Shown one piece after another: positions 11,550 to 30,981 of a DNA stretch of 64,000 bases. Source of the DNA: Prostheceraeus crozeri (lineage: Eukaryota; Platyhelminthes; Polycladida; Euryleptidae); contig CAJQUW010005739.1 in the NCBI GenBank assembly GCA_907163375.1, positions 62,001 through 126,000 of the forward strand, in the 5' to 3' direction. Below the pieces are notes generated by a model. The model had not been told where the DNA came from and made no database searches. It saw nothing but the letters and a program-made list of their open reading frames with translations. A program made the position numbers and the translations under genes. How positions within the stretch are numbered: position 1 is the first letter of the stretch; every line of letters begins with the position of its first letter.

Positions 11550-11685
11550 AACGAGAAAACTTTAACCGAGAAAACTTTAAACGAAAAGATGTCAAACAAC
11601 AAAGCAATAAAAAAATAATTTGTTCAGTAAAATGTTTTTGCTGTATTCCAATGTTACCACAAAATTCAAATATTATATTTTAAAA

Positions 11686-12507
11686 ATGGATAAAATTAGA
11701 GCTGATAATTTTAAAAGAATAAAACAATTAGAAGAGTTAATAAAACAAAGAAATATTATGAAAGAAAATCATCTTCAACATAGAATGATAAAAGCTGGTA
11801 TTCAATCTGATATGTTTGAAAAAATGCAGCAAACCGAGCAAGTAAAAACTGATTTTGAGAAAACTATGAAACCATTTAAAACTCTTGAAAAAGAAAGTAC
11901 AAATAATGATAAACAAATTGATATAACAGATCCAGAGCACAAAACTGTATTAGATCACTATGGATTACTAGAATCAAACATTAATAAGAAATTACCAAAA
12001 TCTATGCAATTTGAACATTCTATCTCATTTATAGATGGAAAAACAATACCTAGATTTTATCTCGGACAAAAAGAAATATTTCCACAACCTTTTCGAGGTA
12101 TAATTTTTTCACCAGATAAATCTCCTTTTGATTTAGATAGAAATTTTGTTAATCTTTTAAGAGGAGCAGATTTAAATAATTATGCTGTAGAAGATCTCAT
12201 AAAATATAAAGCTATGTTAGACAGAGTTGGTGCAGTAAAATCTCTTAGACGTTATAAACAATTAGAAAATTTATTATCAACGGGAGTTAAAGTAGGGAAA
12301 GGTTTATCTGAAAAACAGAAAACTGAAACAACCATATTTTTACCAGATGATCCACAAGAATTACTAAATAGATTAAATATTTTAATATCTGCAATAAAAG
12401 AAGGACATAATTCTAGTTTCAATGAAATTCATGCTATATTGAAAAGACTGTTAGAAAAGAAGATTCTAAATGAAGAGGATTATAAAAGTATAACCGGTCA
12501 TCTCTGA
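11686..12507 (+). CDS. Conserved Polinton protein, resembling the DUF8207-type family (tentative)
   Basis: 273 aa; the start at 11686 follows TTTTAAAA. The N-terminus is a Lys/Glu-rich coiled-coil-like segment (residues 1-75). The central part (about 105-200) has a pattern I associate with an uncharacterised protein common in invertebrate Polintons: a short beta region (SFIDGKTIPRFYLG) followed by NLLRGADLNNYAVEDLIKYK, in which a Leu-rich turn leads into a DL..YK helix. The C-terminus is helical. Function is unknown; a structural or assembly role is suggested only by its place beside the minor capsid gene. A GGGC-TTC-GCCC hairpin follows the stop after 9 bp. Confidence 0.72.
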   Translation: MDKIRADNFKRIKQLEELIKQRNIMKENHLQHRMIKAGIQSDMFEKMQQTEQVKTDFEKTMKPFKTLEKESTNNDKQIDITDPEHKTVLDHYGLLESNINKKLPKSMQFEHSISFIDGKTIPRFYLGQKEIFPQPFRGIIFSPDKSPFDLDRNFVNLLRGADLNNYAVEDLIKYKAMLDRVGAVKSLRRYKQLENLLSTGVKVGKGLSEKQKTETTIFLPDDPQELLNRLNILISAIKEGHNSSFNEIHAILKRLLEKKILNEEDYKSITGHL

Positions 12508-12516
12508 TGTCTTTAA

Positions 12517-12527
12517 GGGCTTCGCCC
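12517..12527 (+). terminator. GC-rich hairpin GGGC-TTC-GCCC after the 273-aa gene
   Basis: A perfect 4-bp stem with a 3-nt loop, 9 bp after the stop codon, in a surrounding of almost pure A/T. It is one of a dispersed hairpin family in this element. A role in mRNA 3'-end formation is inferred from position only. Confidence 0.4.
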
Positions 12528-12612
12528 GTAGCTGAAATATGTTGTTGTTTTTAATTTTTTATAAAAAAAAATATTTCATAAAAAAATATTTATTTAAAAT
12601 TTTAACTAAAAA

Positions 12613-13401
12613 ATGTGTTCAGCAGATTTAGACAAAATTAATAATCATTTAGAAAATTTGACAGAGATTTTGGGTTCATCAAAATTTAGTACGACGTTAA
12701 AAATTATAACAACTACTTCATCACACACTTGTAATTTAGAACCCATTCTACATTTGGAACAAAATAAAAATTATCAAATTGCATTGACTAGTTTCTCCAC
12801 ATTTAACACTATTCAAAACGTTATAAAAGATGTGAATGATCAATTTAGATATTCTACTGATAAAGGCAAAACATGGAAAATATTAACTTTTCTTCCTGGT
12901 TCTTACGAAGTTGAAACAATATCAAATGAAATTAAGAGACATTTAGGTATACCATTTAAAGATAAGAAACAATTACATTTTGCAGTTGAACCGGCAGTTA
13001 ATAAATTTTCTCTTACTTTAGACGAAAATCATCAAGTTGATTTTAATCATGATAGATCATTGTCAAAGCTATTAGGATTTAATAAACATACCTATAGTCA
13101 AGGTTATCATTTAGGTGAGAAGATTCCAAAAATAACTGAAATAAATTCAATTGTTGTACATTGTGACATTATTGAAGGAGGATATATAAATGGTAAATTG
13201 TCAAATTTAATATTCAGTTTTCCAGCTTTTACTGTACCCATTGGTTATAGATTAAATGTATTTCCACAAACATTAATATATTTTCCTATTACAAGAAAAA
13301 CTATTAACAACATTAACATTAGAATCACTGATGAAAAAGGACAAGAAATAAATTTTGGAGGTGAAGAGATTATGATAGATCTTTTGGTTCGGGAGGTATA
13401 A
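12613..13401 (+). CDS. Minor capsid protein (penton-like single jelly roll)
   Basis: 262 aa; starts after ACTAAAAA. The sequence alternates short beta strands and loops. NKNYQIALTSFSTFNTIQNV near residue 55, the VHCDIIEGGYINGKLSNLIF block near 180 and a C-terminal strand series ending in INFGGEEIMIDL are typical of the Polinton/adintovirus penton-like protein. In these viruses the protein forms the pentameric vertices of an icosahedral capsid. It lies next to the packaging ATPase, as in many Polintons. No break or missing part is evident. Confidence 0.85.
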   Translation: MCSADLDKINNHLENLTEILGSSKFSTTLKIITTTSSHTCNLEPILHLEQNKNYQIALTSFSTFNTIQNVIKDVNDQFRYSTDKGKTWKILTFLPGSYEVETISNEIKRHLGIPFKDKKQLHFAVEPAVNKFSLTLDENHQVDFNHDRSLSKLLGFNKHTYSQGYHLGEKIPKITEINSIVVHCDIIEGGYINGKLSNLIFSFPAFTVPIGYRLNVFPQTLIYFPITRKTINNINIRITDEKGQEINFGGEEIMIDLLVREV

Positions 13402-13489
13402 ACTCCCACGCGAAGCTAGAGAAGTTTAATTTTCTTCTTCTTTAGAAACAAAAAATACAAAAAATAAAGATAATTTTTTTTATTAAAAA

Positions 13490-14257
13490 ATGAGTGAACT
13501 ACCTCCATTAAATAAAAAAAAACTTAAATTTAATCATCATCCAAATTTATCTAATAAAGTTTTGTCAGTTATTTGTGGAAGATCAGGATGTGGAAAAACA
13601 TATCTATTATTTAAAATTTTAACGACTCCAAATTTTTTGGATTATAACAATCTTATAATTTATACAACAACAGCAGAACAACCCGTCTATCAATTTTTAA
13701 AATATGGATTTGAAAATAATCTTAAAAAAACTGCAATTGCTTCATTATTCAAAGAATATGAAAAATCTGAAGATGAAGAAGAAATAAGTTCGTGGTGTGA
13801 AGAAGCAACAAAAAATAATCAGTTAGTAGAATCTAATAAAAATAAGCATATAAAAATACAATTAATAGATGATAGTGGTAATATGCAAGATCCTAGTAAA
13901 CTAGATAAAACAATGAAACATTGTGTAATTTTTGATGATTGTGTTAATGATAGAAATCAGTCAGTTCAGAGAAATTATTTCACAAGAGGTAGACATAATA
14001 ACTGTAGTGTATTTTATTTAACACAAAGTATGTATTCATTAGACGGAAGTGTTATTAGAAAGAATGCAAATATATTTATACTATTTGAAATAAATGCAAG
14101 AAACTTAAGTGATTTGTTAAGAGATTTATGTGTAAGAAATAAAGATGAATTTAAACAATCGTGTAACAATGCTTGGTCAAAAGATTATGGATTTATCACA
14201 ATTAATATTGATAAAAAAATTCATGAAAGAGTTATAGAAAATATTTTCGAGGAGTGA
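13490..14257 (+). CDS. FtsK/HerA-type genome packaging ATPase
   Basis: 255 aa; starts after TATTAAAAA. Walker A GRSGCGKT is at residues 30-37 and Walker B VIFDD at 146-150, with the second acidic residue as probable catalytic base. A sensor-like LTQSMYSLDGSVIRKNAN segment follows, matching the motif after Walker B in A32-like packaging ATPases. The enzyme uses ATP to pump viral DNA into preformed capsids. The length is normal for Polinton ATPases and no key residue is missing. The stop is followed by a 13-bp direct repeat containing CGAACGGAGTG twice (14264-14290). Confidence 0.93.
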   Translation: MSELPPLNKKKLKFNHHPNLSNKVLSVICGRSGCGKTYLLFKILTTPNFLDYNNLIIYTTTAEQPVYQFLKYGFENNLKKTAIASLFKEYEKSEDEEEISSWCEEATKNNQLVESNKNKHIKIQLIDDSGNMQDPSKLDKTMKHCVIFDDCVNDRNQSVQRNYFTRGRHNNCSVFYLTQSMYSLDGSVIRKNANIFILFEINARNLSDLLRDLCVRNKDEFKQSCNNAWSKDYGFITINIDKKIHERVIENIFEE

Positions 14258-14263
14258 TCGAAC

Positions 14264-14291
14264 GGAGTGACCGAACGGAGTGGCCGAATAA
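14264..14291 (+). repeat. Short GC-rich direct repeat after the ATPase gene
   Basis: CGAACGGAGTG occurs twice in tandem, followed by GGCCGAA. CCG-AA-CGG within it can fold on itself. It sits in an AT-rich spacer directly after the stop, like the other GC-rich elements. Confidence 0.6.
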
Positions 14292-14334
14292 TTTTTTCTT
14301 ATAAATTTTTTGTTAATAAAAATAAAAAAAAAAT

Positions 14335-14640
14335 ATGTTGAATGATTATAAGATAGAGCATGTACCAGTTTTAAAAGATTATCGTCATCCTACAAATCCT
14401 GTAAATTCGAAGAAAGAAGCTAGATTTTATTATCATCATAAATACGTAGCGCTCGTTACAGATTATAAAACAAAACATGGTATTAAACCGTGTGTTAAAA
14501 CAAAAGACTTTCCACTTTGTTTAAGAAGTTTCCGAGTATTTTTGGCGTATAATAATTTATGGTGGTTGGTTAAGAAAGAACATTTAACAGCACATGAATT
14601 AGAAACATTACATCAATTACATATTCCTGTGTATATGTAA
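14335..14640 (+). CDS. Small protein of unknown function between ATPase and PolB
   Basis: 101 aa, His- and Tyr-rich and basic, with one long helix-forming stretch and the motif FRVFLAYNNLWWLVKKEHLTAHEL near the C-terminus. The start follows a long A-run (AAAAAAAATATG). It has typical codon use for this element and is flanked by the same spacer type as its neighbours, so it is probably real. No family is recognised. The position between packaging ATPase and DNA polymerase could indicate a replication or virion accessory role; that is speculation. Confidence 0.65.
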   Translation: MLNDYKIEHVPVLKDYRHPTNPVNSKKEARFYYHHKYVALVTDYKTKHGIKPCVKTKDFPLCLRSFRVFLAYNNLWWLVKKEHLTAHELETLHQLHIPVYM

Positions 14641-14645
14641 AAACG

Positions 14646-14657
14646 GAACCGAGGTTC
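14646..14657 (+). terminator. Hairpin GAACC-GA-GGTTC after the 101-aa gene
   Basis: A perfect 5-bp stem with a 2-nt loop, 5 bp after the stop codon at 14638-14640. Same class as the hairpins after other genes of this element. Confidence 0.4.
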
Positions 14658-14689
14658 TATGTAAAAATTCATTTTTTCTTTTAAAAAAT

Positions 14690-17600
14690 ATGAATCGTGA
14701 AATGTCTCTCGGACAAACGTCTAGGATTGATGAATTAATCAAGAAACAAACTGCTGAGTTTGATGCGCAAATTAAACATAGTAAACGTATTAAAAAACAG
14801 AAACGTACTAGGCGTAGTATTAGACGTAATACTAAAAAACAGAAACGTGGAACAAAAGAAATATTAGAAACTCCTATTAGTGATATCTTTTTTGATGATA
14901 GAATTAAGGATGAACTTGGTGATGATTTATGTAATTTATTTAATCCAAATGAAATTAAATATGAAAATGTATCTTTTATTAATGTAGTAAATGATATGCG
15001 GAAACTTTTAGCAAATGGTAAAATTATTAATTTACTTGGAAAAGTTGTTAAAGATCAGGAAAATATAATTCAAAATTTTTACGTAACCTTCTATAATAAA
15101 AAATCATTTGAAACATGGTTTTCGAATCTGGATGAGAAATCCGATGCTAACGAATGGATTTTTACAGGTAATATTAAATATGAAGATTTTGGAATGAAGT
15201 TAGTACAAAGATCGCATAGAGGGGCAGGGATTAATATGAAATATAGAATCAAAGAATATTTCGGTGAATATTGTTATATTCCTTCTGAAGATTTTTGTTT
15301 TATTAAATGTTATAATGTTTTACGAGGTTTTAATGAAGAACAAGGAGAAATGATGAAAGAAATGTTTAATAATTTTTTATATAAAGAGAAAGCCACATCC
15401 AGAACAGGAGTAATGTCAAACTGTAAATTTTCTCAATTCAATAAATATTTTGGAGAATGTGTTCAATATTATAGTCCTGCCAATCGTCATTTAAATCCTA
15501 GAGGAATTGAAACGTTTCATAATTATGTTTATTACAATTATTTTCACGCAGGTTCAACAATTGGTCACTATTGTTTAATTAATAAATCTCATAAATTAAA
15601 AGCTATTAGAGAAATTGAAAATAATTTCAAACCCATATATAAAACAGTTACTGATGAAAATCTAACAACGCGTCCATATAAAATCATAACAAAGAAAAAA
15701 ATTGACTATGGTTCAACATATATTTGGGATCTCGAAACTTTTCCCGATCCTAACTGTTCAACAGCTCATCCTATTCCTTACGCTGTAGGAGCTATTAATT
15801 TTAATAAATTTATATGTTGTTTACCGAAACAAAGATTGAAAGAATTAGAAACACGTTTGTTAAGTGATATGATTAAAATTAAACGATCAAAAGATGAAGA
15901 TGAAATTAAAAAACTTAAAAAACAGATTAATGAGTATAATAATTTAACTGAATTAGAATTTAATAAACTTCAAAATTGTGTGAAAATATTTACGAGAACT
16001 GAGGATGATGAATGTTCGATCGGGGGAAACCCAGAGGACGTATGTCCGATCCATCAATTTTTTAAAACTCTTGGAAAATTTAATTATTCTAGAGTAACTT
16101 TAATAGCTCACAATTCATCAGGTTTTGATTCCTATTTTCCGATAAAAGCTAATTTTAAATTATCTAAACCGCCTCTTAAAACTTCAAGAGGAATATTGAC
16201 TGCTTCATTACAAAATCCTTATACAACTGAATGTGTTAGTAGATACATTCAAAAATCTTTTAGATTTAAAAACAATATGAAAAAAGATTCACCTTCAGGT
16301 AAATTAGCACTTCAAACTATTATAATGAAATGTAGTTATCAACATGTAAAAACAAGTCTTTCTAAATGGTGTGAGAATTTTAAAATTCCTACGAATGTGT
16401 GTAAATTAAATTATGAAATTGGAGACATAACACATGAAAATTATAAAGAAAAAGAAAATGAATGGAGACCATATTTAGTTAACGATATTCTTTCTTTAGC
16501 TTTTTGTATCTACAAATATAATAATGTTATGCAAGATTTAGTTGGTGAAGATATAACTACTAATTTGACATCCTCTGCTTTAACATTTAACGGTTGGATG
16601 AAAAGCGTACAAAATGACAATATAAATATTCATTCTCATATAGATTTATGGGCTAGAAATTATATTAGAAAATCTGTTAAAGGTGGAAGAGTTTCAGCAA
16701 ATATAAGAAAATACATATCGCCATTTTGTAGCATCTTGTTACCAATATTAAAACAGTATTTACCTGGTCGCTACGCTGGGGGGACTTTGTCCCTTGGTCG
16801 CTACGCTGAGGGGACTTTGTCCCTTGGTCGCTACGCTGGTGGGGTTTTGTCCCCTGGAAATAATTTAATAGATTTAATGAAACAGTATCGAGATTTAGGA
16901 GATAAAACTGAAATTTGTAAGAAAATTGCAAATCAACTACTTGAACAAAAAAATGAATTTCTAATGGCTTTTGATGCAACATCTTTATATCCATCAGCTA
17001 TGTATGATGAAAATTCAGAATACCCTAAAGCTGAATCAGCTAGAAAATTTCGTCAAGAAGAAGAGCGGGAAATAGTATATAAATTTAATACACAAACATT
17101 TAGACCAAAAACTGGAATATTCTCTGTTGTGTTTCAATATCCGAATGATATGTTTTTCCAACCAGTTCCTATTAAAGATAAAGTTAAAAATCAAAATAAT
17201 AATTCTCATGTAAAAGTAATCAGGTTTAGAAATGGTATATGTTATGATGTATTAACTTCTGTTGACATACAAGAAATTGTTAGATGTGGGGGGAAAATCT
17301 TACATATTACTGATGGTATAATTTATGAAAAAAATTATCAAGTTTCACCATTTCGAAATTATATTGAAAAACTTTTTAATTTGAGAAAAAGATATAAAAC
17401 AGAAGGAAATACTGTAGGTGATGAGTTAATTAAATTATTGATGAATTCGCTATATGGCAAAACTGTGCAAAAAGATATAACCACTAAATATCATTTATGG
17501 AATGAGAATACATTGAGAAAAAATTTCACTCAAGAAGTAAAAGATTATGAAAAATTAAATGATGACCAATATTTAGCGAAAGTAGAAATGGAAGATGATG

Positions 17601-18247
17601 AATTTCTCAAAACTAATATTGTAAAAGATGGGAAGACGTCATTCATGCCATCACACTTAGGTTCTTTCATTCTTTCTCACTCTAGAAGAATCATGAATAA
17701 CTTTATTTTAGAAATTAATGGTTTCAAAGAAAAATACATTCATTATACAGATACTGATTCAATATATATTTCCAATGAGCTCTTTAATAAATTAGACGCG
17801 GCTGGATATGTTGGAGGAGAATTGTGTCAAGGGAAAAATGATTATGGAAATGGTGGAATTATTTTTGCAATGTTTATTGCACCTAAAGTAAAATACTGTA
17901 TTACTGTAGATGAACAAGGGAGACTTAGTGAAAAGAAAACATTCAAAGGTTATTCACAAAACAAAGTAAAAGTAGAAGATTTTCTAAAATTATATTCGGG
18001 GAAAACATTATCGACTACAGTTAATAAACCATGGAAAAGATCTTTAGAAACTGGAATTAGTATTCCTGATAAAAATAATAATACTGAAGAAAAAAAATTT
18101 TCTGGTCAAATAAATATTCTTAAACGTCAAGCACCTGATGAAAATGAAATTATGTTACCTTATAACGGAGAAGATATTCAAGCTGAAATATTTCAAACAA
18201 TCATCTGTGAGAGTAATTTAAGTGATGATGATGACACGTGGGAATAA
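14690..18247 (+). CDS. polB: Protein-primed family B DNA polymerase
   Basis: 1185 aa. A basic N-terminal region (residues 1-65) precedes an N-terminal domain that may include the priming function. Exonuclease motifs: DLET at 347-350 (Exo I) and NSSGFDSY with Asp480 (Exo II). Polymerase motifs: FDATSLYPS with Asp762 (motif A), NSLYGK from Asn919 (motif B) and YTDTDS with Asp1021/Asp1023 (motif C). These define a protein-primed DNA polymerase B, which replicates the linear element from its ends with a terminal protein as primer. Oddities are a triplicated 30-bp GC-rich insert (16766-16855, residues about 693-722) between the exonuclease and polymerase cores, and a GC-rich insert near 16020-16050. 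All catalytic residues are present. Confidence 0.96.
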   Translation: MNREMSLGQTSRIDELIKKQTAEFDAQIKHSKRIKKQKRTRRSIRRNTKKQKRGTKEILETPISDIFFDDRIKDELGDDLCNLFNPNEIKYENVSFINVVNDMRKLLANGKIINLLGKVVKDQENIIQNFYVTFYNKKSFETWFSNLDEKSDANEWIFTGNIKYEDFGMKLVQRSHRGAGINMKYRIKEYFGEYCYIPSEDFCFIKCYNVLRGFNEEQGEMMKEMFNNFLYKEKATSRTGVMSNCKFSQFNKYFGECVQYYSPANRHLNPRGIETFHNYVYYNYFHAGSTIGHYCLINKSHKLKAIREIENNFKPIYKTVTDENLTTRPYKIITKKKIDYGSTYIWDLETFPDPNCSTAHPIPYAVGAINFNKFICCLPKQRLKELETRLLSDMIKIKRSKDEDEIKKLKKQINEYNNLTELEFNKLQNCVKIFTRTEDDECSIGGNPEDVCPIHQFFKTLGKFNYSRVTLIAHNSSGFDSYFPIKANFKLSKPPLKTSRGILTASLQNPYTTECVSRYIQKSFRFKNNMKKDSPSGKLALQTIIMKCSYQHVKTSLSKWCENFKIPTNVCKLNYEIGDITHENYKEKENEWRPYLVNDILSLAFCIYKYNNVMQDLVGEDITTNLTSSALTFNGWMKSVQNDNINIHSHIDLWARNYIRKSVKGGRVSANIRKYISPFCSILLPILKQYLPGRYAGGTLSLGRYAEGTLSLGRYAGGVLSPGNNLIDLMKQYRDLGDKTEICKKIANQLLEQKNEFLMAFDATSLYPSAMYDENSEYPKAESARKFRQEEEREIVYKFNTQTFRPKTGIFSVVFQYPNDMFFQPVPIKDKVKNQNNNSHVKVIRFRNGICYDVLTSVDIQEIVRCGGKILHITDGIIYEKNYQVSPFRNYIEKLFNLRKRYKTEGNTVGDELIKLLMNSLYGKTVQKDITTKYHLWNENTLRKNFTQEVKDYEKLNDDQYLAKVEMEDDEFLKTNIVKDGKTSFMPSHLGSFILSHSRRIMNNFILEINGFKEKYIHYTDTDSIYISNELFNKLDAAGYVGGELCQGKNDYGNGGIIFAMFIAPKVKYCITVDEQGRLSEKKTFKGYSQNKVKVEDFLKLYSGKTLSTTVNKPWKRSLETGISIPDKNNNTEEKKFSGQINILKRQAPDENEIMLPYNGEDIQAEIFQTIICESNLSDDDDTWE
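16036..16047 (+). repeat. In-frame hairpin GGAC-GTAT-GTCC inside polB
   Basis: A 4-bp stem within a short GC-rich island (about 16015-16055) in otherwise AT-rich coding sequence. It encodes a Gly/Cys/Pro-rich loop just before Exo II. Confidence 0.5.
16766..16855 (+). repeat. Three 30-bp GC-rich tandem units inside polB
   Basis: The units start at 16766, 16796 and 16826. The first two contain the hairpin GGGAC-TTT-GTCCC (16781-16793, 16811-16823), and the third a G4..C4 version. Being 30 bp long, they keep the frame and encode GRYA(G/E)G-LS-type repeats. They are probably tolerated in a surface loop. Confidence 0.9.
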
Positions 18248-18249
18248 AA

Positions 18250-18580
18250 ATTTTTTTATAACATCTAAAAAATTTATTACATCTAAAAATTTATAACATC
18301 TAAAAAATTTATAACATCTAAAAAATTTATTACATCTAAAAACTTATTACATCTAAAAACTTTATTACATCTAAAAACTTATTACATCTAAAAAATTTAT
18401 TACATCTAAAAATTTTATAACATCTAAAAATTTTATAACATCTAAAAATTTTATAACATCTAAAAAATTTATTACATCTAAAAAATTTATAACATCTAAA
18501 AATTTATTACATCTAAAAAATTTATTACATCTAAAAATTTATAACATCTAAAAATTTTATTACATATGAAAATATATTTA
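18250..18580. repeat. AT-rich tandem repeat between convergent genes
   Basis: About 18-19 copies of a 17-18-bp unit of the type TTATNACATCTAAAAA, filling nearly the whole gap between polB (plus) and the 433-aa gene (minus). Two alternating forms (ATAACATC and ATTACATC) are intermixed. Its place between converging genes suits a transcription end region, but no function is shown. Confidence 0.9.
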
Positions 18581-18617
18581 TCGAATATTTTGTTATTTTC
18601 TATTAAGTTTTATCATA

Positions 18618-19919
18618 TTAAGTTTCATCATATAATGTTTTATCAAAAGATAATTTAAATTTTTTTTCACTAACTATTGATTCTTCATCATCATCATCAA
18701 TTGATTCTTCATCATCATCATAAATTGTTTCTTCATCATCATAAATTACACTTTTTGGGATTGGATGCCCTTCCATGATAGGATACCATTCTCTTATTGG
18801 AATATCTAATTCTAAATTACATCTTTTATCTGATAATAATATAATAGAGAAAAATATTGGTCTTTGATCTCTTTTGGAAAATTTAATAACACCACCATAA
18901 TCTGAATCACTTTTAGTTTTTGTTAAAGATGATAAAATTTTAAATTGATTAGATGTAAATCCTAATTTAAATTTTGTAGACCCGACACATAGTTGTCTAA
19001 CAGTATCTTCAACTATACCATCATTATTATTTTCAATTGTAAGAAAATGAAATTTAGATAAATTTTTATAATTACTAATATTTTTATAATCTTTTTTACC
19101 ATTTACACCTTTTTCAGATGTTTCAGAATCATCATCTATATTATCATAAGATTCTTTAAGATCGGGCAAAGCCCTAGAACCTTCGGTTCGTTTATTATGA
19201 ATATGATTATGGTCATTGTTAATAGTATAAGGTGTTGTCCACATATAAATTTTTTCTTGTTGAGCTAAGCCATTTATGTAAGATTTTAACAAATTAATAT
19301 TTAAGTTTGAATATAATCCTATATACGTATCATCATCATATCTTTGCGGCATTTCTAATGTTTCTTGTTTATGAATTGTGTCTCTATAATAAACTTGACA
19401 TAATAATTCTTCATTATGTTTTTTACTCTCTATATGAATGTTATATTGATTTTGATCGTCAACAAATAATCTAATTTTTTCTTTCGAAAAAGATTTTAAT
19501 TTTTTAACTAATTCTTTAATATTGATATAATTAATAATTTTAGTTTCTATCCAATCAGTATTACTAATTGGTAACACTGCTCTAATAAATCCATAAACAT
19601 TATTATGACCTATTATAACCATATTTTCTTTATTTAATTCCACATAAGCTACATCATTATATTTACTAACAATATCCATAAATTTAATAAATGGATCCCC
19701 CGGAAATAAACAATAATTAGTTTCTATAGAAGGTAAACCTTTAGTCTGTTCTCTAAATATTTCGGCTTGTAATTGAAATAAAATATTAACATCTATACAT
19801 GGATTATTATTATTATTATTATTATCAAAACATTTATTTTCAAATCCCGTTGATCTCGTCGAATAAGAAGAACAGGATGATGCGGGCGAATATAATTTTT
19901 TTAAATTTGGATTTTCCAT
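18618..19919 (-). CDS. 433-aa protein of unknown function
   Basis: The only gene besides the protease to run on the minus strand in the core. It starts after AAAATAAAAAAA. The N-terminal 50 residues are Ser/Asn-rich, with a run of seven Asn. The middle and C-terminal parts look beta-rich in two similar-sized halves (about 60-215 and 285-385), separated by an acidic, His-rich linker. The C-terminus has an acidic repeat (DDEETIYDDDEESIDDDDEES). The two-half beta layout faintly recalls sliding-clamp proteins, but no diagnostic motif is visible, so this is a weak guess. The linker coincides with a pair of GC-rich hairpins (19164-19189). Confidence 0.7.
   Translation of the reverse strand: MENPNLKKLYSPASSCSSYSTRSTGFENKCFDNNNNNNNPCIDVNILFQLQAEIFREQTKGLPSIETNYCLFPGDPFIKFMDIVSKYNDVAYVELNKENMVIIGHNNVYGFIRAVLPISNTDWIETKIINYINIKELVKKLKSFSKEKIRLFVDDQNQYNIHIESKKHNEELLCQVYYRDTIHKQETLEMPQRYDDDTYIGLYSNLNINLLKSYINGLAQQEKIYMWTTPYTINNDHNHIHNKRTEGSRALPDLKESYDNIDDDSETSEKGVNGKKDYKNISNYKNLSKFHFLTIENNNDGIVEDTVRQLCVGSTKFKLGFTSNQFKILSSLTKTKSDSDYGGVIKFSKRDQRPIFFSIILLSDKRCNLELDIPIREWYPIMEGHPIPKSVIYDDEETIYDDDEESIDDDDEESIVSEKKFKLSFDKTLYDET
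19164..19189. repeat. Two adjacent hairpins inside the 433-aa gene
   Basis: GGGC-AAA-GCCC (19164-19174) and GAACC-TTC-GGTTC (19177-19189), separated by 2 bp, in coding sequence that is otherwise AT-rich. They encode part of a flexible linker (residues about 244-252). Confidence 0.75.
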
Positions 19920-19924
19920 TTTTT

Positions 19925-20040
19925 TATTTTTATTAGAAAAAATTTTATTTTTTATTTTTATTAGAAAAAATTTTATTTTTTATTGTTATTAGAAAAAATT
20001 TTATTTTTTATTTTTATTAGAAAAAATTTTATTTTTTTAT
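19925..20040. repeat. Four 28-bp AT-rich units in a divergent promoter region
   Basis: Four copies of a 28-bp unit containing TTAGAAAAAATTTTATT fill the space between the divergent starts at 19919 (minus) and 20050 (plus). The arrangement suggests a shared bidirectional promoter, by position only. Confidence 0.85.
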
Positions 20041-20049
20041 TGTTAAAAA

Positions 20050-20937
20050 ATGATGTTACCAAATGTTGGTGGAGGTGCATATATCCCGAATAATCGTGAA
20101 TTAGAAATAGAGATAGAAAATTATATTATGAAAACTGGAGACGTTTTATCTGGTCCATTGCATCTTTCTATTCTTCCACAACAAAATACAGAGTTAACAA
20201 ATAAACAATATGTTGATACACAAATCAATGATTTAAAGGAAAAATATATAAACGATGTTTTGGTTCCACTGATGAATGAATTAAAGTTGCTAAAACTTAA
20301 TGACAAATCATTAAACGAAAAATTATTAAAACTTGATAAAAAGGATAGAGAGCTAGAAGCAGATATAGCAAAACTTTTTAAAAAGATTTCAGAACAATCA
20401 AAAATTTTAATATTACTTTCTATAAAGTTAAAATCTGCAGTCATTAAAAATAAACATCAGATAAAAATGTTAAAAGAACAATTAGAAGATGAAATAGAAA
20501 ATCTACCTGAAAGAATTAAAAAAAATTTAAAGCAGTTGCAAACTACATTCCAAAAAAGTGTTGATGAATTGAGTTCTAAAATTACTCAACAAATGAAAAA
20601 GATGAATAGAATAATAAATGAAGTAAACTCACTTAATCAAAAAGTTGATAAAATGAAAACTCTTAAAATCAATTTAGAAAATGAATTAAAGAAAAATTTA
20701 CAAGAAAACTCTAAAGAAAATAAAGAACAGTTAGATGCTGTTAAAAGACAATTAGATGTTCTTAAAATTAAGTTAAATGCTCTTAAAACGGCGTTGAAGA
20801 TTAATCAGCAGAAAATGCAAGTTAATAGAAGAGAAATTAAAGTACATCACACGCTGCTTGACGCAATAGATAAAGTGCAACAGTCAATTAATAAAGTTAT
20901 CTCGAAGTTGTTGTCCATTCACAAACGTAAATCTTAA
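20050..20937 (+). CDS. Coiled-coil protein with phage tail-fibre-like N-terminal motif
   Basis: 295 aa; starts after GTTAAAAA. Residues 27-56 (MKTGDVLSGPLHL, then NKQYVD) match the pattern of a short repeat found in bacteriophage tail-fibre and collar-type proteins: T-G-x-hydrophobic-S-G-P-L-x-L, a gap, then x-N-K-Q-Y-V-D. The rest (about 60-290) is a long, Lys/Glu/Leu-rich coiled coil with heptad character and no Cys. This looks like a trimeric or parallel fibre attached through its N-terminus. A receptor-binding or vertex fibre role is inferred, supported by the adjacent virion genes. It could also be an internal scaffold. Four GC-rich hairpins follow the stop. Confidence 0.75.
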   Translation: MMLPNVGGGAYIPNNRELEIEIENYIMKTGDVLSGPLHLSILPQQNTELTNKQYVDTQINDLKEKYINDVLVPLMNELKLLKLNDKSLNEKLLKLDKKDRELEADIAKLFKKISEQSKILILLSIKLKSAVIKNKHQIKMLKEQLEDEIENLPERIKKNLKQLQTTFQKSVDELSSKITQQMKKMNRIINEVNSLNQKVDKMKTLKINLENELKKNLQENSKENKEQLDAVKRQLDVLKIKLNALKTALKINQQKMQVNRREIKVHHTLLDAIDKVQQSINKVISKLLSIHKRKS

Positions 20938-20939
20938 AC

Positions 20940-20997
20940 GGACCAAAGGTCCTCAGGTTACTAACCAATCGGAGCGAATCTCCTCGAGGCTTTAGCC
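20940..20997 (+). terminator. Cluster of four hairpins after the fibre-like gene
   Basis: GGACC-AAA-GGTCC (20940-20952), GGTTA-C-TAACC (20956-20966), GGAG-CGAAT-CTCC (20971-20983) and GGCT-TT-AGCC (20988-20997). They fill the spacer between the stop at 20937 and the next gene. This is the densest hairpin cluster in the element. Confidence 0.5.
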
Positions 20998-21041
20998 GAT
21001 CGTAAATATTTTTTCCCAAAAGTCAAATTTAATCCTAAAAA

Positions 21042-21563
21042 ATGCCTATAATTTATAAACATAATCTTAAACATTTTGCTTCAAATCAAAGAATTGCTCA
21101 TGAACCACGTATGAATCCTGTTTATCATTATGATAATAGAGAAACAATCGGAACACAAAAGTTCCAAGGCACCGCAGGTGCCGTTCAAAAAGAAGGGGAT
21201 GGCATCTTTTCTGGTATTGGAAGTATCGTTAACGTGATAAAAAATAATAAAGATTTGATTACATCTGCCGCAAAAGGAGCAGCTGCTATAGGTAGTACAG
21301 CTAGTGCAATATCAAATGCTGTCAAGTCTCAAAACGAATTAAAACAACTAGAAGCTATTCGTAAACTTAGGAATGATTCTGAAGAACTAAAAAAATTAAA
21401 AAAACTTTCAGATGAAACAAAGAACAAAATTGCTAACATAGCTGTGGATGGTGATAGTAAACATAATGAAAAAACAATTGAAGAAATAAGAGGAAATGGC
21501 GTGAGTAGCAACCTTCGGTCTAACCAGCATAGCTGTAGCGGAGCTGGGCTAGCAAAATTCTAA
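21042..21563 (+). CDS. Minor virion protein with membrane-active-type segment
   Basis: 173 aa; starts after CCTAAAAA. Residues about 52-95 (GDGIFSGIGSIVNVI, then an Ala/Gly/Ser-rich helix) look like the amphipathic, membrane-active segments found in minor virion proteins of Polintons and adenovirus-like viruses. A charged helix follows. IRGNG at 149-153 fits the adenain cleavage pattern (M/I/L)-x-G-x-G, so the element's own protease could trim the last 20 residues. That tail is coded by a GC-rich hairpin-bearing stretch (21505-21560), perhaps a read-through of a former spacer. The hairpin GGCACC-GCA-GGTGCC lies in frame at 21168-21182. Confidence 0.75.
   Translation: MPIIYKHNLKHFASNQRIAHEPRMNPVYHYDNRETIGTQKFQGTAGAVQKEGDGIFSGIGSIVNVIKNNKDLITSAAKGAAAIGSTASAISNAVKSQNELKQLEAIRKLRNDSEELKKLKKLSDETKNKIANIAVDGDSKHNEKTIEEIRGNGVSSNLRSNQHSCSGAGLAKF
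21150..21182 (+). repeat. Two in-frame hairpins in the membrane-active protein gene
   Basis: GGAAC-ACAAAA-GTTCC (21150-21165) and GGCACC-GCA-GGTGCC (21168-21182). The second is a perfect 6-bp stem with a 3-nt loop, 15 bp long, and so frame-neutral as an insertion. Confidence 0.75.
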
Positions 21564-21656
21564 AATTATATTTTAGTAAAATTTTTTAGTAATTTTTTTA
21601 GTAAAATTTTTTTCTGTCTGTGAGAAAAACAAAAAGTCAAATTATTTTTTATAAAA

Positions 21657-22991
21657 ATGTCTTCGCTTATCGAAAATAAATTTAGATTAGACGATCCTCC
21701 GTTCGTCAGTTATAATCAAAAAAAGAATGACTATATAAGAATTGCTATGAATCCCGGATCTTCCAGTAGAGTAAATACTGGAGGAGATTTAATCTTTGAA
21801 GTTGATAATCAGCAGAGTTATTTATATTTACCTGATTCATTTTTACACTGTGAATATTCTTTATATAGTGATGCTAATTTTACAACACCATTACCTGATA
21901 CCGATAATATTGCACTAGAGAATAATTTCTTTCCAAGATTATTTACACAAATGCGTTTAGATGTTGCAACTCAAAATATAGAAACAATAAGTGATTCTCC
22001 AGGTGTAATTGATACAATGCTTAGATTTGTAACAATTGGTGAAAATAATAAAAATTATGAAATCGAAGGTTGGTTTCCTGATACTAATGATGGTATAATT
22101 GTTGATGATTTAACTCACGCTGGAACAGATGCAGCAGGAATTGCGAAAGATGTAGAAAATATTGCAAAACATTTAAATAAAACAAATAATGAAGCATATA
22201 AAGAAAGACGTGAATTTAACAAGAAAAGTAAACAGACAGTTAATTGGTCATTGTCTCCATTATTCGGATATTTAGATTATGATAAAATATCATATCAATT
22301 AAAATTTAAATTAATAATTCATCGTACAGCAAATAATGAATTAATCTTTTTTGGTAAGACTGGGAAAAAAGCATATTTAAAAATTGATAGACTTGAATGG
22401 TGGATTAAGCATATTACTCCTAGTTTAGAGGTTGAAACAGCTATTGCAAAAAGATTAAATACTAACAAACCAATTCCAGTAAATTTTCTAAAGCGTACTG
22501 CTAGTTCAGTAACTTTTTCCGAACAAAGATTTAACTGGCATTTTACTAGAACTGCGAATACTCCAAGATATTTATTACTAACATTTCAAAGAAATAATTC
22601 TCCAAGTTTTGATAAGAACAATAATATTTTTCATATTAATACAATTCGAAGTTTACAAGTTTCATTAAATCAAACTCGATATCCAATTGATCCATTAAGA
22701 TTCGATGATACCAATAATCAATTTATGGAAGGATATGATTCTTATAGAAATCTTTGTACAGAATTTGGAGTTGAACCACAATTAACTCCTGGAGATTGGA
22801 GACATTTATATCCAAATTTCTGCTTCGATTTAAGTGCACAATCTGAAGATATTATTAAAAATGGTTGTGATGTTACAATTAATATTGAAAAGAAAGATTC
22901 CACAACTTCATTGATGGCTTATGGTTTATTGCTAGAAGATGTAAAATATTCTATTGAAATTCTTAATGGGAAGATGACTAGAATAGGCTAA
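21657..22991 (+). CDS. Major capsid protein (double jelly roll)
   Basis: 444 aa; starts after TTATAAAA. The pattern of the Polinton major capsid protein is clear. There is an N-terminal strand region (IRIAMNPGSSSRVNTGG, then DNQQSYLYLPDSFLHCEY) and a central SPLFGYLDYDKISYQLKFKL block. LEWWIKHITPSLEVE leads into the second jelly roll, with a C-terminal FCFDLSAQSEDIIKNGCDVTINIE strand series. Trimers of this protein form the hexagonal capsomers. The ORF is complete. The stop codon is part of a GGCT-AA-AGCC hairpin (22986-22995). Confidence 0.92.
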   Translation: MSSLIENKFRLDDPPFVSYNQKKNDYIRIAMNPGSSSRVNTGGDLIFEVDNQQSYLYLPDSFLHCEYSLYSDANFTTPLPDTDNIALENNFFPRLFTQMRLDVATQNIETISDSPGVIDTMLRFVTIGENNKNYEIEGWFPDTNDGIIVDDLTHAGTDAAGIAKDVENIAKHLNKTNNEAYKERREFNKKSKQTVNWSLSPLFGYLDYDKISYQLKFKLIIHRTANNELIFFGKTGKKAYLKIDRLEWWIKHITPSLEVETAIAKRLNTNKPIPVNFLKRTASSVTFSEQRFNWHFTRTANTPRYLLLTFQRNNSPSFDKNNNIFHINTIRSLQVSLNQTRYPIDPLRFDDTNNQFMEGYDSYRNLCTEFGVEPQLTPGDWRHLYPNFCFDLSAQSEDIIKNGCDVTINIEKKDSTTSLMAYGLLLEDVKYSIEILNGKMTRIG

Positions 22992-23006
22992 AGCCCAAGA
23001 ATTCTT
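22986..23006 (+). terminator. Hairpin overlapping the MCP stop codon, plus a palindrome
   Basis: GGCT-AA-AGCC (22986-22995) includes the TAA stop at 22989-22991; AAGAATTCTT (22997-23006) is a perfect palindrome directly after it. Confidence 0.45.
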
Positions 23007-23014
23007 CGTTTAAT

Positions 23015-23180
23015 TAATTAAAATTTTTTCATAACTAGAATAGATTAAAAATTCTTAACTTAAAATTTTTCATAACTAGAATAGATTAAAATTTTTTGGT
23101 AACTTAAAATTTTTTAGTAACTTGAAATTTTTTCATAACTAGAATAGATTTAAATTTTTGATAACTTAAAATTTTTTTAT
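23015..23180 (+). repeat. AT-rich degenerate tandem repeat upstream of the 161-aa gene
   Basis: Repeated pieces of the type TTTTTCATAACTAGAATAGATT (four copies in varying states) and GGTAACTTAAAATTTTT. They fill the spacer between the MCP gene and the next start. Confidence 0.8.
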
Positions 23181-23185
23181 TAAAA

Positions 23186-23671
23186 ATGTCGCAAGCGAAA
23201 AGTAATATTAATAATAAAACTGTTGAATTAAAATTACGTAATATTGTTGACAAAAATACCCCTAAAACTATTACGATTAACAAAAAAAAGTATTACATAA
23301 GTAAACCAATGATAGAGAATATTCAATTACAAGAAGAAAAGAATGGTGGAATTCTCCCATTAATTCCACTAATAATAGGAGGCATAGCAGCTGCAGGAAG
23401 TGTTGCAGGCGGGACAGCTGGTATTGTCCAAGCAGTAAATAAAAATAAATCAGAGAAGGCAGCATTAGAAGAACAAAAACGTCATAATAGGGAGTTAGAG
23501 AAAGTTGCTAGGGGAGAAGGAATAGTAGATAATTTTATCAGTAAATTAAAATTAGTTGATGAAGGAAAACGAGTTCTTAAAAATATTCTCCACAATGTTG
23601 ATGATTTAATTGAAATTAAAGAAACTAAAGATGGTTCTGGAATATATCTAAGTCCTAGTATGATAAGGTAA
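23186..23671 (+). CDS. Conserved Polinton minor virion protein (membrane-segment, GxYLxP type)
   Basis: 161 aa; starts after TTATTAAAA. It has a basic N-terminus and then a hydrophobic Gly/Ala-rich segment (GGILPLIPLIIGGIAAAGS, about residues 53-72) continuing as GGTAGIVQAVN. A charged helix with EEQKRHNRELEKVARGEG follows, and the C-terminal SGIYLSPS. This combination recurs in invertebrate Polintons and adintoviruses, where the protein is thought to be a minor virion component analogous to small adenovirus core or membrane-lytic proteins. The role is by family analogy. It is followed after 7 bp by an AGAACC-TTT-GGTTCT hairpin. Confidence 0.8.
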   Translation: MSQAKSNINNKTVELKLRNIVDKNTPKTITINKKKYYISKPMIENIQLQEEKNGGILPLIPLIIGGIAAAGSVAGGTAGIVQAVNKNKSEKAALEEQKRHNRELEKVARGEGIVDNFISKLKLVDEGKRVLKNILHNVDDLIEIKETKDGSGIYLSPSMIR

Positions 23672-23678
23672 TAACCTC

Positions 23679-23693
23679 AGAACCTTTGGTTCT
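23679..23693 (+). terminator. Hairpin AGAACC-TTT-GGTTCT after the 161-aa gene
   Basis: A perfect 6-bp stem with a 3-nt loop, 7 bp after the stop at 23669-23671. One of the clearest members of the hairpin family. Confidence 0.5.
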
Positions 23694-23742
23694 TTTCGGT
23701 AAAACTTTTATTTTATCTTTTAAAAGTTTTTTATCTTTAAAA

Positions 23743-25086
23743 ATGGATTCCGCAAATTCCACAAATTCAGAAAATTTAATTAAATTAAAAATTGCTAATT
23801 TAGATTTATTAAATTATCTATTAAACAAAAATAAAAACTCAAACTGTCAGCATATTGGAGGTGACAAGAACAAAGTTCCACACCACTTCGGTGGTGATAT
23901 ACAAAAAACATTAGAAAACTTTCCTGGATTTATTTGGAGTAAATATTCGAAAGAAAAACATCTTCCTGGTCATTCATATACTGGGCCAGGAACTCGATTA
24001 GATATAAGACTAGATGAGAATAATAATCCGAAACCAGGTGAAGAACCAATAAATAGAGTAGATGCCGCCGCTTACAGGCATGATTTAGCTTATCGAAATC
24101 ATGATCTAAGTTCTCGACATGCAGCTGATAAGAAGATGATTCAAGAATTAGATAGTATTCAAAATCCTACATTTAGAGAAAAAATTGAAAGAATGTTTGT
24201 TAAGAAAGCTTTACAAGCTAAAATATTATTCGGTCAGGGTATTGATCCGTCAGCAAATGAAACGACAGCTAAGCTGTCTGAGAGCAACGCTCGAACCTAC
24301 GCGTCTGAAATTCATAAAGAATACAGAAGGCCTAAATATTTATTAAAAGTAAAAGTATTTAATAAAGATGATATTTGGAGTGCTGATCTTATTCATATGC
24401 CGAATGAAAGGGACTACAAATACGCATTGACCGTTATAGATTTATATACACGATACGCTTGGGTAAAGCCTTTAAAAAATAAAAGTGGTCTATCAGTTAA
24501 ATATGCGTTTGAAGAAATCTTTAAAGAAAGTAAGAGAAAGCCAAAAAAATTGTTTGTTGATAAAGGGTCGGAATTTTATAACAGAAACGTTCAGCCACTA
24601 TTTGAAATTGTTTATTCAACTGAAAACGCTGGGAAGGCCGTAGTGATAGAAAGATTCAATCGGACGTTAAAAAATAAATTATTCAAGAAATTTACTGAGC
24701 AAAGAAATCAGAAATGGTTAAAAATATTACCAGGAATTGTAGATGAGTACAATAATAAAGTTCATTCTGGTATTGAAGAAACTCCAAAGAATGCTTCTGA
24801 CGACCCTGATCTAGTACGAAAGAAAATATTCGAGAATAATAATTTGAATGAGAGTAATCCGAATTTGCAGAAACTTAAGCCGAAATTTAAAATTGGAGAT
24901 AGAGTTAGAATATTTAAATATAAGAATAAATTTGAAAAAGGCTTTGTTGGTTATTGGACTAAAGAAATATTTGAAGTTTGCAAAATAAATAAAACTTATC
25001 CGATTACTTATGAAATTAAAGATTTAGATAATGAGGATATCAGAGGTCGTTTTTATCAAAATGAATTACAGAAAACAGAGCTTTAA
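23743..25086 (+). CDS. Phospholipase A2-like domain fused to retroviral-type integrase
   Basis: 447 aa from the ATG at 23743, chosen because it follows CTTTAAAA as in other genes of the element. Residues 75-140 are a parvovirus-type phospholipase A2 domain: YTGPG at 79-83 (calcium loop) and HDLAY at 113-117 with catalytic His113/Asp114. Such domains breach endosomal membranes during entry. Residues about 195-330 are an integrase core with Asp215, Asp273 and Glu303. The second Asp to Glu spacing (29 residues between) is shorter than the common 35. The C-terminus (about 385-440) looks like the small beta domain of Polinton integrases. The joint (residues about 173-184) is coded by two GC-rich hairpins. 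The fusion is one uninterrupted frame. Confidence 0.88.
   Translation: MDSANSTNSENLIKLKIANLDLLNYLLNKNKNSNCQHIGGDKNKVPHHFGGDIQKTLENFPGFIWSKYSKEKHLPGHSYTGPGTRLDIRLDENNNPKPGEEPINRVDAAAYRHDLAYRNHDLSSRHAADKKMIQELDSIQNPTFREKIERMFVKKALQAKILFGQGIDPSANETTAKLSESNARTYASEIHKEYRRPKYLLKVKVFNKDDIWSADLIHMPNERDYKYALTVIDLYTRYAWVKPLKNKSGLSVKYAFEEIFKESKRKPKKLFVDKGSEFYNRNVQPLFEIVYSTENAGKAVVIERFNRTLKNKLFKKFTEQRNQKWLKILPGIVDEYNNKVHSGIEETPKNASDDPDLVRKKIFENNNLNESNPNLQKLKPKFKIGDRVRIFKYKNKFEKGFVGYWTKEIFEVCKINKTYPITYEIKDLDNEDIRGRFYQNELQKTEL
23881..23896 (+). repeat. In-frame hairpin CACCAC-TTCG-GTGGTG
   Basis: A 6-bp stem closing a TTCG tetraloop with a C-G pair, the especially stable RNA tetraloop class. It lies in the N-terminal part of the phospholipase-integrase gene and encodes part of a repeated GGD motif. 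Confidence 0.8.
24264..24292 (+). repeat. Two hairpins at the phospholipase-integrase junction
   Basis: GACAGC-TAA-GCTGTC (24264-24278) and GAGC-AAC-GCTC (24282-24292). They lie exactly between the end of the phospholipase domain and the start of sequence that resembles the usual beginning of Polinton integrases. Confidence 0.8.
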
Positions 25087-25120
25087 CCTTTAGGTGGCGC
25101 TTTAGCTAGCTTCGCTTGAG

Positions 25121-25582
25121 TTATAGATTGTTTAACTCTAACATAATATCTAGAAATGGTACTCCTTTTTGTAATTTGTACAAAACGTATAAACATAATT
25201 GACCACAATAGGTAGTGCCTGGTGTTTGAATTTGAAACGTATTGTATGTTCCCGTTCCAAATAATTCTTTTACTTCATTTGTAGGTTGAAGCCCGTATGA
25301 GTCAAAATAATAATTATCTCCGTTTTTACTAAAGATACCTGCTGACCAATGTACGCCGTTTTGGTCTGAAGTGTGAAGATTCGTTATGAAATTTACAGTT
25401 ATTGATGGAACTTTGTTCCGGGAACTGAAGGTTCCTGTTGGCCTATTTTTTAGGAATTGTAATTCATCCCTCATCAATATGTGAAAATTCTTTATTCCTA
25501 ATTCATTTGCGATTTTCTTTAGGTCGAAATTCGTTGTTGTCTGTGTTCCATATAATTTCAAAAACTCATTTATGTTGCTCAT
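25121..25582 (-). CDS. Adenain-like cysteine protease
   Basis: 153 aa; starts after TTATTATAAA on the minus strand. Catalytic residues are visible: His78 in GVHWSA, Asp94 in YYFDSYG, Gln119 and Cys126 in TTYCGQLCLY. The Gln-Cys spacing of seven is that of the adenovirus maturation protease family. The enzyme cleaves virion precursor proteins during maturation; one candidate substrate site is seen in the 173-aa protein. It runs toward the integrase gene, with only 34 bp of GC-rich spacer (25087-25120) between the two stops. The gene contains two GC-rich hairpins (25407-25435). The length is somewhat short, but all key residues are present. Confidence 0.93.
   Translation of the reverse strand: MSNINEFLKLYGTQTTTNFDLKKIANELGIKNFHILMRDELQFLKNRPTGTFSSRNKVPSITVNFITNLHTSDQNGVHWSAGIFSKNGDNYYFDSYGLQPTNEVKELFGTGTYNTFQIQTPGTTYCGQLCLYVLYKLQKGVPFLDIMLELNNL
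25407..25435. repeat. Two adjacent hairpins inside the protease gene
   Basis: GGAAC-TTT-GTTCC (25407-25419) and GGAAC-TGAAG-GTTCC (25421-25435). They encode the segment around residues 50-58, before the catalytic His, probably a loop. Confidence 0.75.
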
Positions 25583-25612
25583 TTTATAATAAAAAAATTT
25601 CTTAAGGGACCC

Positions 25613-25918: not shown

Positions 25919-25919
25919 T

Positions 25920-26900: not shown

Positions 26901-26922
26901 AACGGTAAGCTACTCCCAATAG

Positions 26923-27400: not shown

Positions 27401-27463
27401 AGTACTTGTCTGTGATGTGAATAAAATATTTCAAAGATGGAAATGTGTTTTCATTTTGTATCG

Positions 27464-30955: not shown

Positions 30956-30981
30956 GTCCTTCTTTCCTTTCCACATTAGAG

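What the first reader, a model, noticed from the sequence alone, without database searches (positions are those of the whole stretch)
12517..25435. Dispersed family of GC-rich micro-hairpins with mostly 3-nt loops across the Polinton
More than 20 short palindromes (stems 4-7 bp, loops mostly TTC, TTT, AAA, AAC, TAA or GCA) stand out as GC islands in very AT-rich DNA. Some lie 5-10 bp after stop codons (12517, 14646, 20940, 23679) or overlap one (22986). Others lie in frame inside polB, the 433-aa gene, the membrane-active gene, the integrase and the protease. Stem sequences differ while the architecture is kept, so they are not one copied element in a simple sense. Mimivirus and its virophages are known to end transcripts at hairpins, and Polintons are related to virophages, so the intergenic ones may be 3'-end signals. 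The intragenic ones recall palindromic selfish inserts such as Rickettsia palindromic elements or mitochondrial GC clusters.
Basis: partly seen in the sequence, partly recalled or inferred. Interest (0 to 1): 0.85.

Follow-up and report, generated by a model that had tools for sequence, protein, structure and literature searches.

The report
Mobile mini-hairpins inside a Polinton
Tiny GC-rich DNA hairpins, often in pairs about 28 letters long, turn up at differing places in copies of a virus-like transposon and sometimes add a stretch to its proteins, which suggests a minute selfish element living on a larger one.

Summary
The micro-hairpins are real and far above chance: 23 against 5.2 expected, 7 strict three-base-loop ones against 0.08. 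Host flanks and two related contigs show no comparable excess. Many form double hairpins of 22-33 nt. In polB and the protease they are insertions absent from nearly all relatives aligned. In the host genome (2.05 Gb) one hairpin occurs 7,588 times, its backwards control 19 times; all 28 loci looked at hold Polinton genes, though most hairpins there lie in DNA that does not align to this window's copy. One 26-nt double hairpin sits in three unrelated contexts. Ten sites or site clusters differ between Polinton copies in presence of a hairpin insert, one being private to a single copy's integrase gene. I read them as non-autonomous mobile double-hairpin elements, working like organellar GC clusters but in a nuclear virus-like element. 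A 3'-end role is not excluded for the hairpins near stop codons (6 of 15 clusters), but some copies lack them. How they move is unknown; target-site duplications are only suggestive.

The parts
10493..31310 (.). Polinton that carries the hairpins, 20,818 bp, flanked by the 6-bp direct repeat ATGGTG
   Evidence: termini AGTAGTTTATAG / CTATAAACTACT, inverted repeats 94% alike
12517..12527 (.). hairpin GGGC-TTC-GCCC behind the second gene; in copy L045 a full double hairpin stands here; L054, L057, L059 lack it (3 of the 6 loci whose aligned range covers it)
13391..13407 (.). GGGAG-GTATAAA-CTCCC over a stop codon (loop of 7, weaker)
14646..14657 (.). GAACC-GA-GGTTC 6 nt behind a stop codon; not compared between copies
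16010..16055 (+). polB insert 1 with GGACGTATGTCC; 14 aa longer than 11 of the 14 relatives listed; P0001 shares it
16765..16857 (+). polB insert 2: three tandem 30-nt units with GGGAC-TTT-GTCCC; P0001 (98% identical) is 20 aa shorter here, 12 of the 14 relatives listed 26-29 aa shorter
19162..19191 (-). double hairpin CGGGCAAAGCCC-TA-GAACCTTCGGTTCG in the 433-aa gene; absent in L097 (1 of 20) and in L005, L049, L055 (3 of 11 loci covering it)
20936..20998 (.). row of hairpins behind the 295-aa gene; absent in L076 (1 of 20), absent or part-absent in L041, L048, L053 (3 of 5 loci covering it); first hairpin swapped in L067, L078
21150..21182 (+). double hairpin GGAACACAAAAGTTCC-AA-GGCACCGCAGGTGCC in the 173-aa gene; present in all 20 copies aligned
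21497..21544 (+). 48-nt hairpin-bearing insert near the end of the 173-aa gene; absent in L076, L078 (2 of 20) and L042 (1 of 5); TGG on both sides
22986..22995 (.). GGCT-AA-AGCC over the stop codon of the capsid gene; absent in L052 (1 of 2 loci covering it)
23679..23693 (.). AGAACC-TTT-GGTTCT behind the 161-aa gene; other versions in other copies
23866..23898 (+). 33-nt double-hairpin insert in the integrase gene; clean empty site in L021, L022, L032 (3 of 28 copies); direct repeat GGTGA
24262..24293 (+). double hairpin in the integrase gene; absent in 7 of 28 copies and in L051, L060; extra tandem 27-nt units in others
25406..25438 (-). 33-nt double-hairpin insert in the adenain-like protease gene; absent in L047, L056, L060 (3 of 6 loci covering it) and from 35-36 of 38 homologues

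Best explanation
The hairpins are copies, intact or decayed, of a family of very short non-autonomous mobile elements, typically a 22-33-nt double hairpin such as CGGGC(A/G)AAGCCC-TA-GAACCTTCGGTTCG, that has spread in and around a high-copy Polinton family. Shown: insertion relative to homologues (polB, protease); presence or absence at the same site between copies; one sequence in several contexts; an insert private to one of the copies aligned. Inferred: selection keeps inserts where they are tolerated, in flexible protein loops and next to stop codons. Inferred without direct evidence: copying to new sites happens while the hairpin is exposed on displaced single strands during protein-primed replication, by template switching or by a nuclease acting in trans, followed by gene conversion between copies.
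For: Excess and pairing. Shared sequence. Insert status: polB 33 of 33 hairpin residues fall in columns gapped in at least half of the rows, against 78 of 1152 elsewhere; protease 10 of 10 against 4 of 143; integrase 10 of 22 against 42 of 425. Clean empty sites and the private L031 insert; more empty sites. The 13-nt hairpin in 10 flank clusters, about eight distinct places by eye, and an exact 26-mer in 3 contexts. 7,588 genomic copies against 19 for the control; 28 of 28 loci looked at hold Polinton genes. The protease insert is the only stretch of 3 or more residues with pLDDT under 50 in a model of mean 89.
Against: No transposing enzyme or autonomous partner was identified. Flanking direct repeats are short and inconsistent (0-6 nt), and the random-position test in the window was not significant. 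Some changes at a site could be gene conversion or tandem duplication. Hairpin-bearing coding indels are less often in frame (12 of 19) than the others (34 of 40), although four of the seven out-of-frame ones lie at gene ends. Only 9 of 38 hairpins in the 28 loci lie in DNA that aligns to this window's element, so confinement to Polintons is not shown. The loci came from the first 100 places listed of 7,588, and two pairs of them overlap. Clusters near stop codons are enriched, which hints at function or selection. The integrase sites lie in linkers that vary anyway.
Confidence: 0.75

Rival explanations
1. The hairpins near stop codons are 3'-end signals for transcript cleavage or termination, as in Mimivirus and Marseilleviridae; the intragenic ones are by-products.
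For: 6 of 15 clusters lie within 40 nt of a stop codon against 1.25 expected, P 0.0009. At 23679 three different fully complementary versions occur, in 19 of the 29 rows that have the site, and at 20940 the first hairpin is swapped for another complementary one in 2 of 20 copies. Marseilleviridae palindromes cluster behind stop codons (PMC5413956, passages).
Against: At 23679 the other 10 of 29 rows pair imperfectly. Copies without any hairpin in the 70 nt after an anchor: 3 true ones of 6 for the second gene (a fourth hit, in L045, is a match elsewhere), 3 of 25 for the 295-aa gene, 1 of 1 for the capsid gene. The related fragment L001 has no hairpin behind three stop codons. The same elements sit inside open reading frames. 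No RNase III or poly(A) polymerase family matched.
Confidence: 0.15
2. Local mutation only: template switching and tandem duplication create and enlarge palindromic, linker-coding repeats, with gene conversion spreading them; nothing moves to new sites.
For: Tandem differences at polB insert 2 (P0001 is 20 aa shorter) and at 24262 (extra 27-nt units). 40 of 59 coding indel events between copies carry no GC hairpin, and many look like AT-rich tandem repeats.
Against: The same 26-mer in three unrelated contexts, and the 13-mer in ten flank clusters. Indels with a hairpin are GC-rich (0.49 against 0.26) in an AT-rich element. The private L031 insert carries the family sequence at a new site.
Confidence: 0.15
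3. Chance palindromes or ordinary GC-rich codons.
For: About 5 of 23 are expected by chance; 17029 is conserved codons; several GC islands hold no clear hairpin.
Against: Shuffles, codon shuffles and insert status.
Confidence: 0.02

Closest known systems
Double-hairpin elements of fungal mitochondrial DNA (Allomyces; Paquin et al. 2000, paper not read; features recalled)
   Same: two adjacent short GC-rich hairpins, dispersed, thought mobile
   Different: mitochondrial there; here in a nuclear Polinton, several inside genes
Yeast mitochondrial GC clusters such as GC42 (PMC4478555, passages)
   Same: GC-rich palindromes in AT-rich DNA, presence/absence polymorphism, merging and shuffling of clusters
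   Different: 42 nt, mitochondrial, the four most abundant flanked by AG or ACT; flanks vary here
Repetitive hairpin-forming elements of sponge mtDNA and palindromic repeats of Volvox organelles (PMC2800124 and PMC2670323, passages)
   Same: short palindromes, in Volvox with loops of 3-5 nt; invasion of many sites
   Different: organellar and mostly outside coding sequence; in Volvox the nuclear copies are judged inert
Rickettsia palindromic elements (PMC3767692, passages)
   Same: insertion into open reading frames without breaking them, at solvent-exposed places
   Different: 100-150 bp, bacterial; here 22-33 nt
Mimivirus and Marseilleviridae hairpin rule for mRNA 3' ends (PMC4402537 and PMC5413956, passages)
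   Same: palindromes behind stop codons; in Mimivirus the sequence is not conserved
   Different: here also inside genes, absent in some copies, no processing enzyme found

Membership tests
Polinton | terminal inverted repeats starting 5'-AG and a 6-bp target-site duplication (definition recalled) | tested here: met
   ATGGTG on both sides, inverted repeats 94% alike
Polinton | type B DNA polymerase, retroviral-type integrase, A32-like ATPase, adenain-like protease, double-jelly-roll capsid protein (definition recalled) | tested here: met
   PF03175, PF00665, PF04665, PF21738; protease profile matches 1avp at E 0.00063
Double-hairpin elements / GC clusters of organelles | short GC-rich palindromes in AT-rich DNA, often two side by side | tested here: met
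Double-hairpin elements / GC clusters of organelles | insertion polymorphism between related genomes or copies | tested here: met
Double-hairpin elements / GC clusters of organelles | located in organelle DNA | tested here: not met
   the window's copies lie in a Polinton inserted in satellite DNA; 28 of 28 loci looked at hold Polinton genes. Whether organelle copies exist as well was not tested
Yeast GC clusters | flanked by AG or ACT direct repeats | tested here: not met
   flanking repeats differ from site to site: GGTGA, TGG, ATCG or none
Rickettsia palindromic elements | in-frame residence in proteins at exposed sites | tested here: met
   the window's polB, integrase and protease genes stay open through their inserts; 12 of 19 hairpin indel events in copies are in frame; protease insert modelled without structure at low confidence
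Rickettsia palindromic elements | 100-150 bp length | tested here: not met
   distinct double hairpins are 22-33 nt
Mimivirus-type hairpin rule | genes end at hairpins, and hairpins are rarer in coding sequence than between genes | tested here: inconclusive
   6 of 15 clusters near stop codons and a higher density between genes (6 in 1,451 nt against 16 in 13,323 nt), but also an excess inside coding sequence
Mimivirus-type hairpin rule | RNase III-like and viral poly(A) polymerase genes | tested here: not met
   none among 14 element proteins scanned against Pfam; a helper virus could still supply them
Mimivirus-type hairpin rule | mapped RNA 3' ends at the hairpin | not testable with these tools
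   no RNA data

The most novel reading that the evidence does not exclude
A hyperparasite at the smallest scale: a roughly 28-nt non-coding element with no known enzyme of its own transposes in a eukaryotic nucleus, lives in and beside one virus-like transposon family, has reached thousands of copies, and writes peptide segments of about 11 residues into that element's proteins.
Probability: 0.45. Interest if true: 0.88.

Novelty: new variant of a known kind. Interest (0 to 1): 0.76.

Why it matters
Mobile micro-palindromes are known from organelles and from Rickettsia, but the passages I read leave open how they move. A nuclear, virus-borne family with thousands of hairpin copies, empty sites and a private insert in one assembly would make insertion preference, target-site duplication and rate directly measurable. 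It also shows a route by which non-coding hairpins become protein loops in viral genes, and it warns that hairpins behind viral stop codons need not be 3'-end signals.

Tried and rejected
Relatives in viral contigs: polB, integrase and capsid queries found none; the polB tandem unit as a pattern had no match; the protease alignment gave one distant contig, L002, with 5 hairpins against 2.2 expected and none strict. One 7.2-kb Polinton fragment, L001, came from genome contigs. Phage records: no match with polB. Rfam: no match at gathering thresholds. PHROGs: only weak matches for 7 proteins. Target-site duplication test on window positions: not significant. Sliding RNA folding did not separate the cases: 12 low-energy windows against 1.5 expected in the element, of which one of three clusters is not a hairpin of this set, and 5 against 0.7 in the hairpin-poor L001. 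Tree of the protease insert: single origin neither shown nor excluded; 6% of bootstrap trees have it. Rejected: chance for the set as a whole; an inherited 3'-end signal as the sole function.

Not in print, as far as searched: the listings show no title or abstract start describing palindromic inserts in Polintons; beyond listings I saw passages of seven papers only. [quoted passage not shown]

The Mimivirus row on gene ends went from not met to inconclusive.
Full report
Observation. I scanned the Polinton for perfect palindromes. With stem >=4, at least 3 GC pairs and loop 2-6 there are 23 in 10809-25582; 200 dinucleotide shuffles give 5.17 on average and at most 14. With at least 4 GC pairs and loop exactly 3 there are 7 in 10740-25582 against 0.08 (100 shuffles). 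Inside coding sequence, codon shuffles give 5.7 where 16 are seen, and 0.12 where 5 strict ones are seen (0 of 300 reach either); in the 1,451 intergenic bases 6 are seen against 0.88. Controls: the left host flank has 19 against 22.3 expected (one adjacent pair) and the right host satellite 22 against 98 (two adjacent pairs in 32.7 kb). The related contigs L001 and L002 have 5 against 2.4 and 5 against 2.2, above the mean but within the shuffles' range (maxima 9 and 7), and no strict ones. So, in this window, the excess belongs to the gene-bearing part of the element.

Anatomy. Ten of the 23 hairpins stand in 5 adjacent pairs within 8 nt, where random placement of 23 gives 0.30 pairs and at most 3 in 5000 trials. 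They are related in sequence: 6 of 22 five-prime arms hold GAAC and 19 of 22 begin with a purine; in 5000 samples of shuffled-sequence hairpins no 4-mer was shared so often and no sample had so many purine starts. Of 15 clusters, 6 lie within 40 nt of a stop codon against 1.25 expected (P 0.0009) and 2 near a start codon against 1.19. For these counts I dropped the second copy of the polB tandem (16811); for the clusters I merged neighbours and dropped 17029, whose codons are conserved.

Insertions against homologues. Homologues came from three protein searches; I aligned 15 of 76 polB, 38 of 120 listed integrase (2,014 found) and 38 of 78 protease proteins. In polB, 33 of 33 hairpin residues fall in columns where at least half of the rows have a gap, against 78 of 1152 elsewhere; in the protease 10 of 10 against 4 of 143; in the integrase 10 of 22 against 42 of 425, weaker because the linkers vary anyway. 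Near relatives share some inserts: P0001 has polB insert 1, and P0197 and P0198 have the protease insert. The weak hairpin at 17029 is made of codons without any gap in 15 rows. In the predicted protease structure (mean pLDDT 89) the only low segment, 51-59, is the insert.

Copies in the host genome. The genome search answered three times. The assembly has 2.05 Gb. GAACCTTCGGTTC occurs 3693 + 3895 times; read backwards, 11 + 8 times. The protease gives 150 scored matches among 11,585 first-look candidates; those listed are 95-100% identical. I looked at 28 loci of the hairpin, 8 cut by the tool and 20 chosen by me from the first 100 places listed; two pairs overlap. All 28 hold a tblastn match to the window's Polinton proteins, but only 9 of the 38 hairpins in them lie in DNA that aligns to the window's element. 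The rest lie in another gene beside the 433-aa gene or in non-coding DNA near either the first gene or the integrase-protease end, as a terminal repeat of other Polinton variants would; that is inference, and host DNA is not excluded.

Presence and absence. Around the integrase and protease I aligned the window with 29 of 30 loci (L017 was too short; L011 is the window's own copy), so 28 other copies. The integrase insert at 23866-23898 is cleanly missing, 33 nt, in 3 of 28. The one at 24262 is missing in 7 of 28 and tandemly enlarged in others. L031 alone has a 35-nt, frame-shifting insert after 24411 in the integrase gene, with a GAACCGAAGGTTC-TA-AGACAAAGTCT double hairpin. All 28 have the protease insert, but they were chosen by likeness to the protein that has it; of six further loci whose aligned range covers it, L047, L056 and L060 lack exactly 33 nt. 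Of 20 copies, one lacks the cluster at 20936, two lack the 48-nt insert at 21497, and all 20 have the double hairpin at 21150. Of 20 copies, one lacks the insert in the 433-aa gene, as do 3 of 11 further loci covering it. The hairpin behind the second gene is missing in 3 of 6 loci covering it, and L045 has a full double hairpin there. L052 lacks the hairpin over the capsid stop codon (1 of 2 covering), and eight loci have a further hairpin insert near 21450 that the window lacks. polB was covered by only three of the fetched loci (L041, L042, L048), and no indel was reported at its inserts; 14646 was not compared. The outgroup proteins lack the polB and protease inserts, so there the empty state is probably the older one. 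Over L003-L100, 59 coding indel events of 15-90 nt (grouped by place and length, so one site can count more than once) were found; 19 carry a GC hairpin (12 in frame, mean GC 0.49) and 40 do not (34 in frame, mean GC 0.26). Indels in general are common here; the hairpin class stands out by composition and repeated sequence, not by being in frame.

One element in many places. In the fetched loci the hairpin GAACCTTCGGTTC has 52 oriented occurrences (overlapping loci included) in 10 flank clusters; by eye two pairs of clusters are variants of the same place, leaving about eight. In 37 of 52 it is preceded exactly by CGGGC(G/A)AAGCCCTA. Of 161 double hairpins there are 17 distinct sequences of 22-33 nt; the exact 26-mer GAACCGAAGGTTCTAGGGCTTCGCCC stands in 3 unrelated contexts, and GGAGCGAAGCTCCTCTGGCTTTAGCC also in 3 by the same flank test. 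Local duplication does not explain this; copying to new sites does.

Target sites. Flanking direct repeats: GGTGA (integrase, 23860 and 23893), TGG (21497 and 25406), ATCG (L042 insert), none or one base at several others. A random-position test in the window was not significant. A target-site duplication is thus suggested, not shown.

3'-end signals. For: enrichment near stop codons; a higher hairpin density between genes than in them; at 23679 three different complementary versions in 19 of 29 rows, and a swapped but complementary hairpin at 20940 in 2 of 20 copies. Against: imperfect pairing in the other 10 of 29 rows at 23679, copies without any hairpin in the 70 nt after the anchor, L001, residence inside genes, no processing enzyme matched. 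The gene ends at 18247 and 18618 have none by my criteria.

Verdict. It works like organellar GC clusters and double-hairpin elements and, inside genes, like Rickettsia palindromic elements; by location, length or flanks it is not filed as a member of these. Mechanism of movement, confinement to Polintons and host identity remain open.

Noticed in passing
10493-10806 and 30983-31310; 27465-27769: The right terminal inverted repeat is separated by about 3.2 kb of pyrimidine-rich sequence (27800-30990) from an inverted copy of the start of the first gene at 27465-27769.
   Followed up: partly
about 10503-10568 and its mirror near 31236-31300: Each Polinton end carries a long palindrome with a (CTTCG)n centre.
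   Followed up: no
window 9307-10493 and 31504-60816: The Polinton sits in a 160/484-bp satellite array.
   Followed up: no
G000: The protease query gives 150 scored matches, 95-100% identical as listed, out of 11,585 first-look candidates: probably a very large and young Polinton expansion.
   Followed up: partly
L001: A 7.2-kb Polinton fragment is filed in an uncultured Muriicola genome assembly, probably a misbinned eukaryotic contig.
   Followed up: no
P0198 and P0202, protease: Both have a further insert of roughly 10 aa at another shared site that the window lacks, possibly another hairpin insert; DNA not available.
   Followed up: no
18255-18578: AT-rich 18-nt tandem repeat behind polB where no hairpin stands.
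   Followed up: no
window 27-3422: Left flank holds pieces of a retrotransposon-like polyprotein (reverse transcriptase-like ORFs; named by eye, no search).
   Followed up: no
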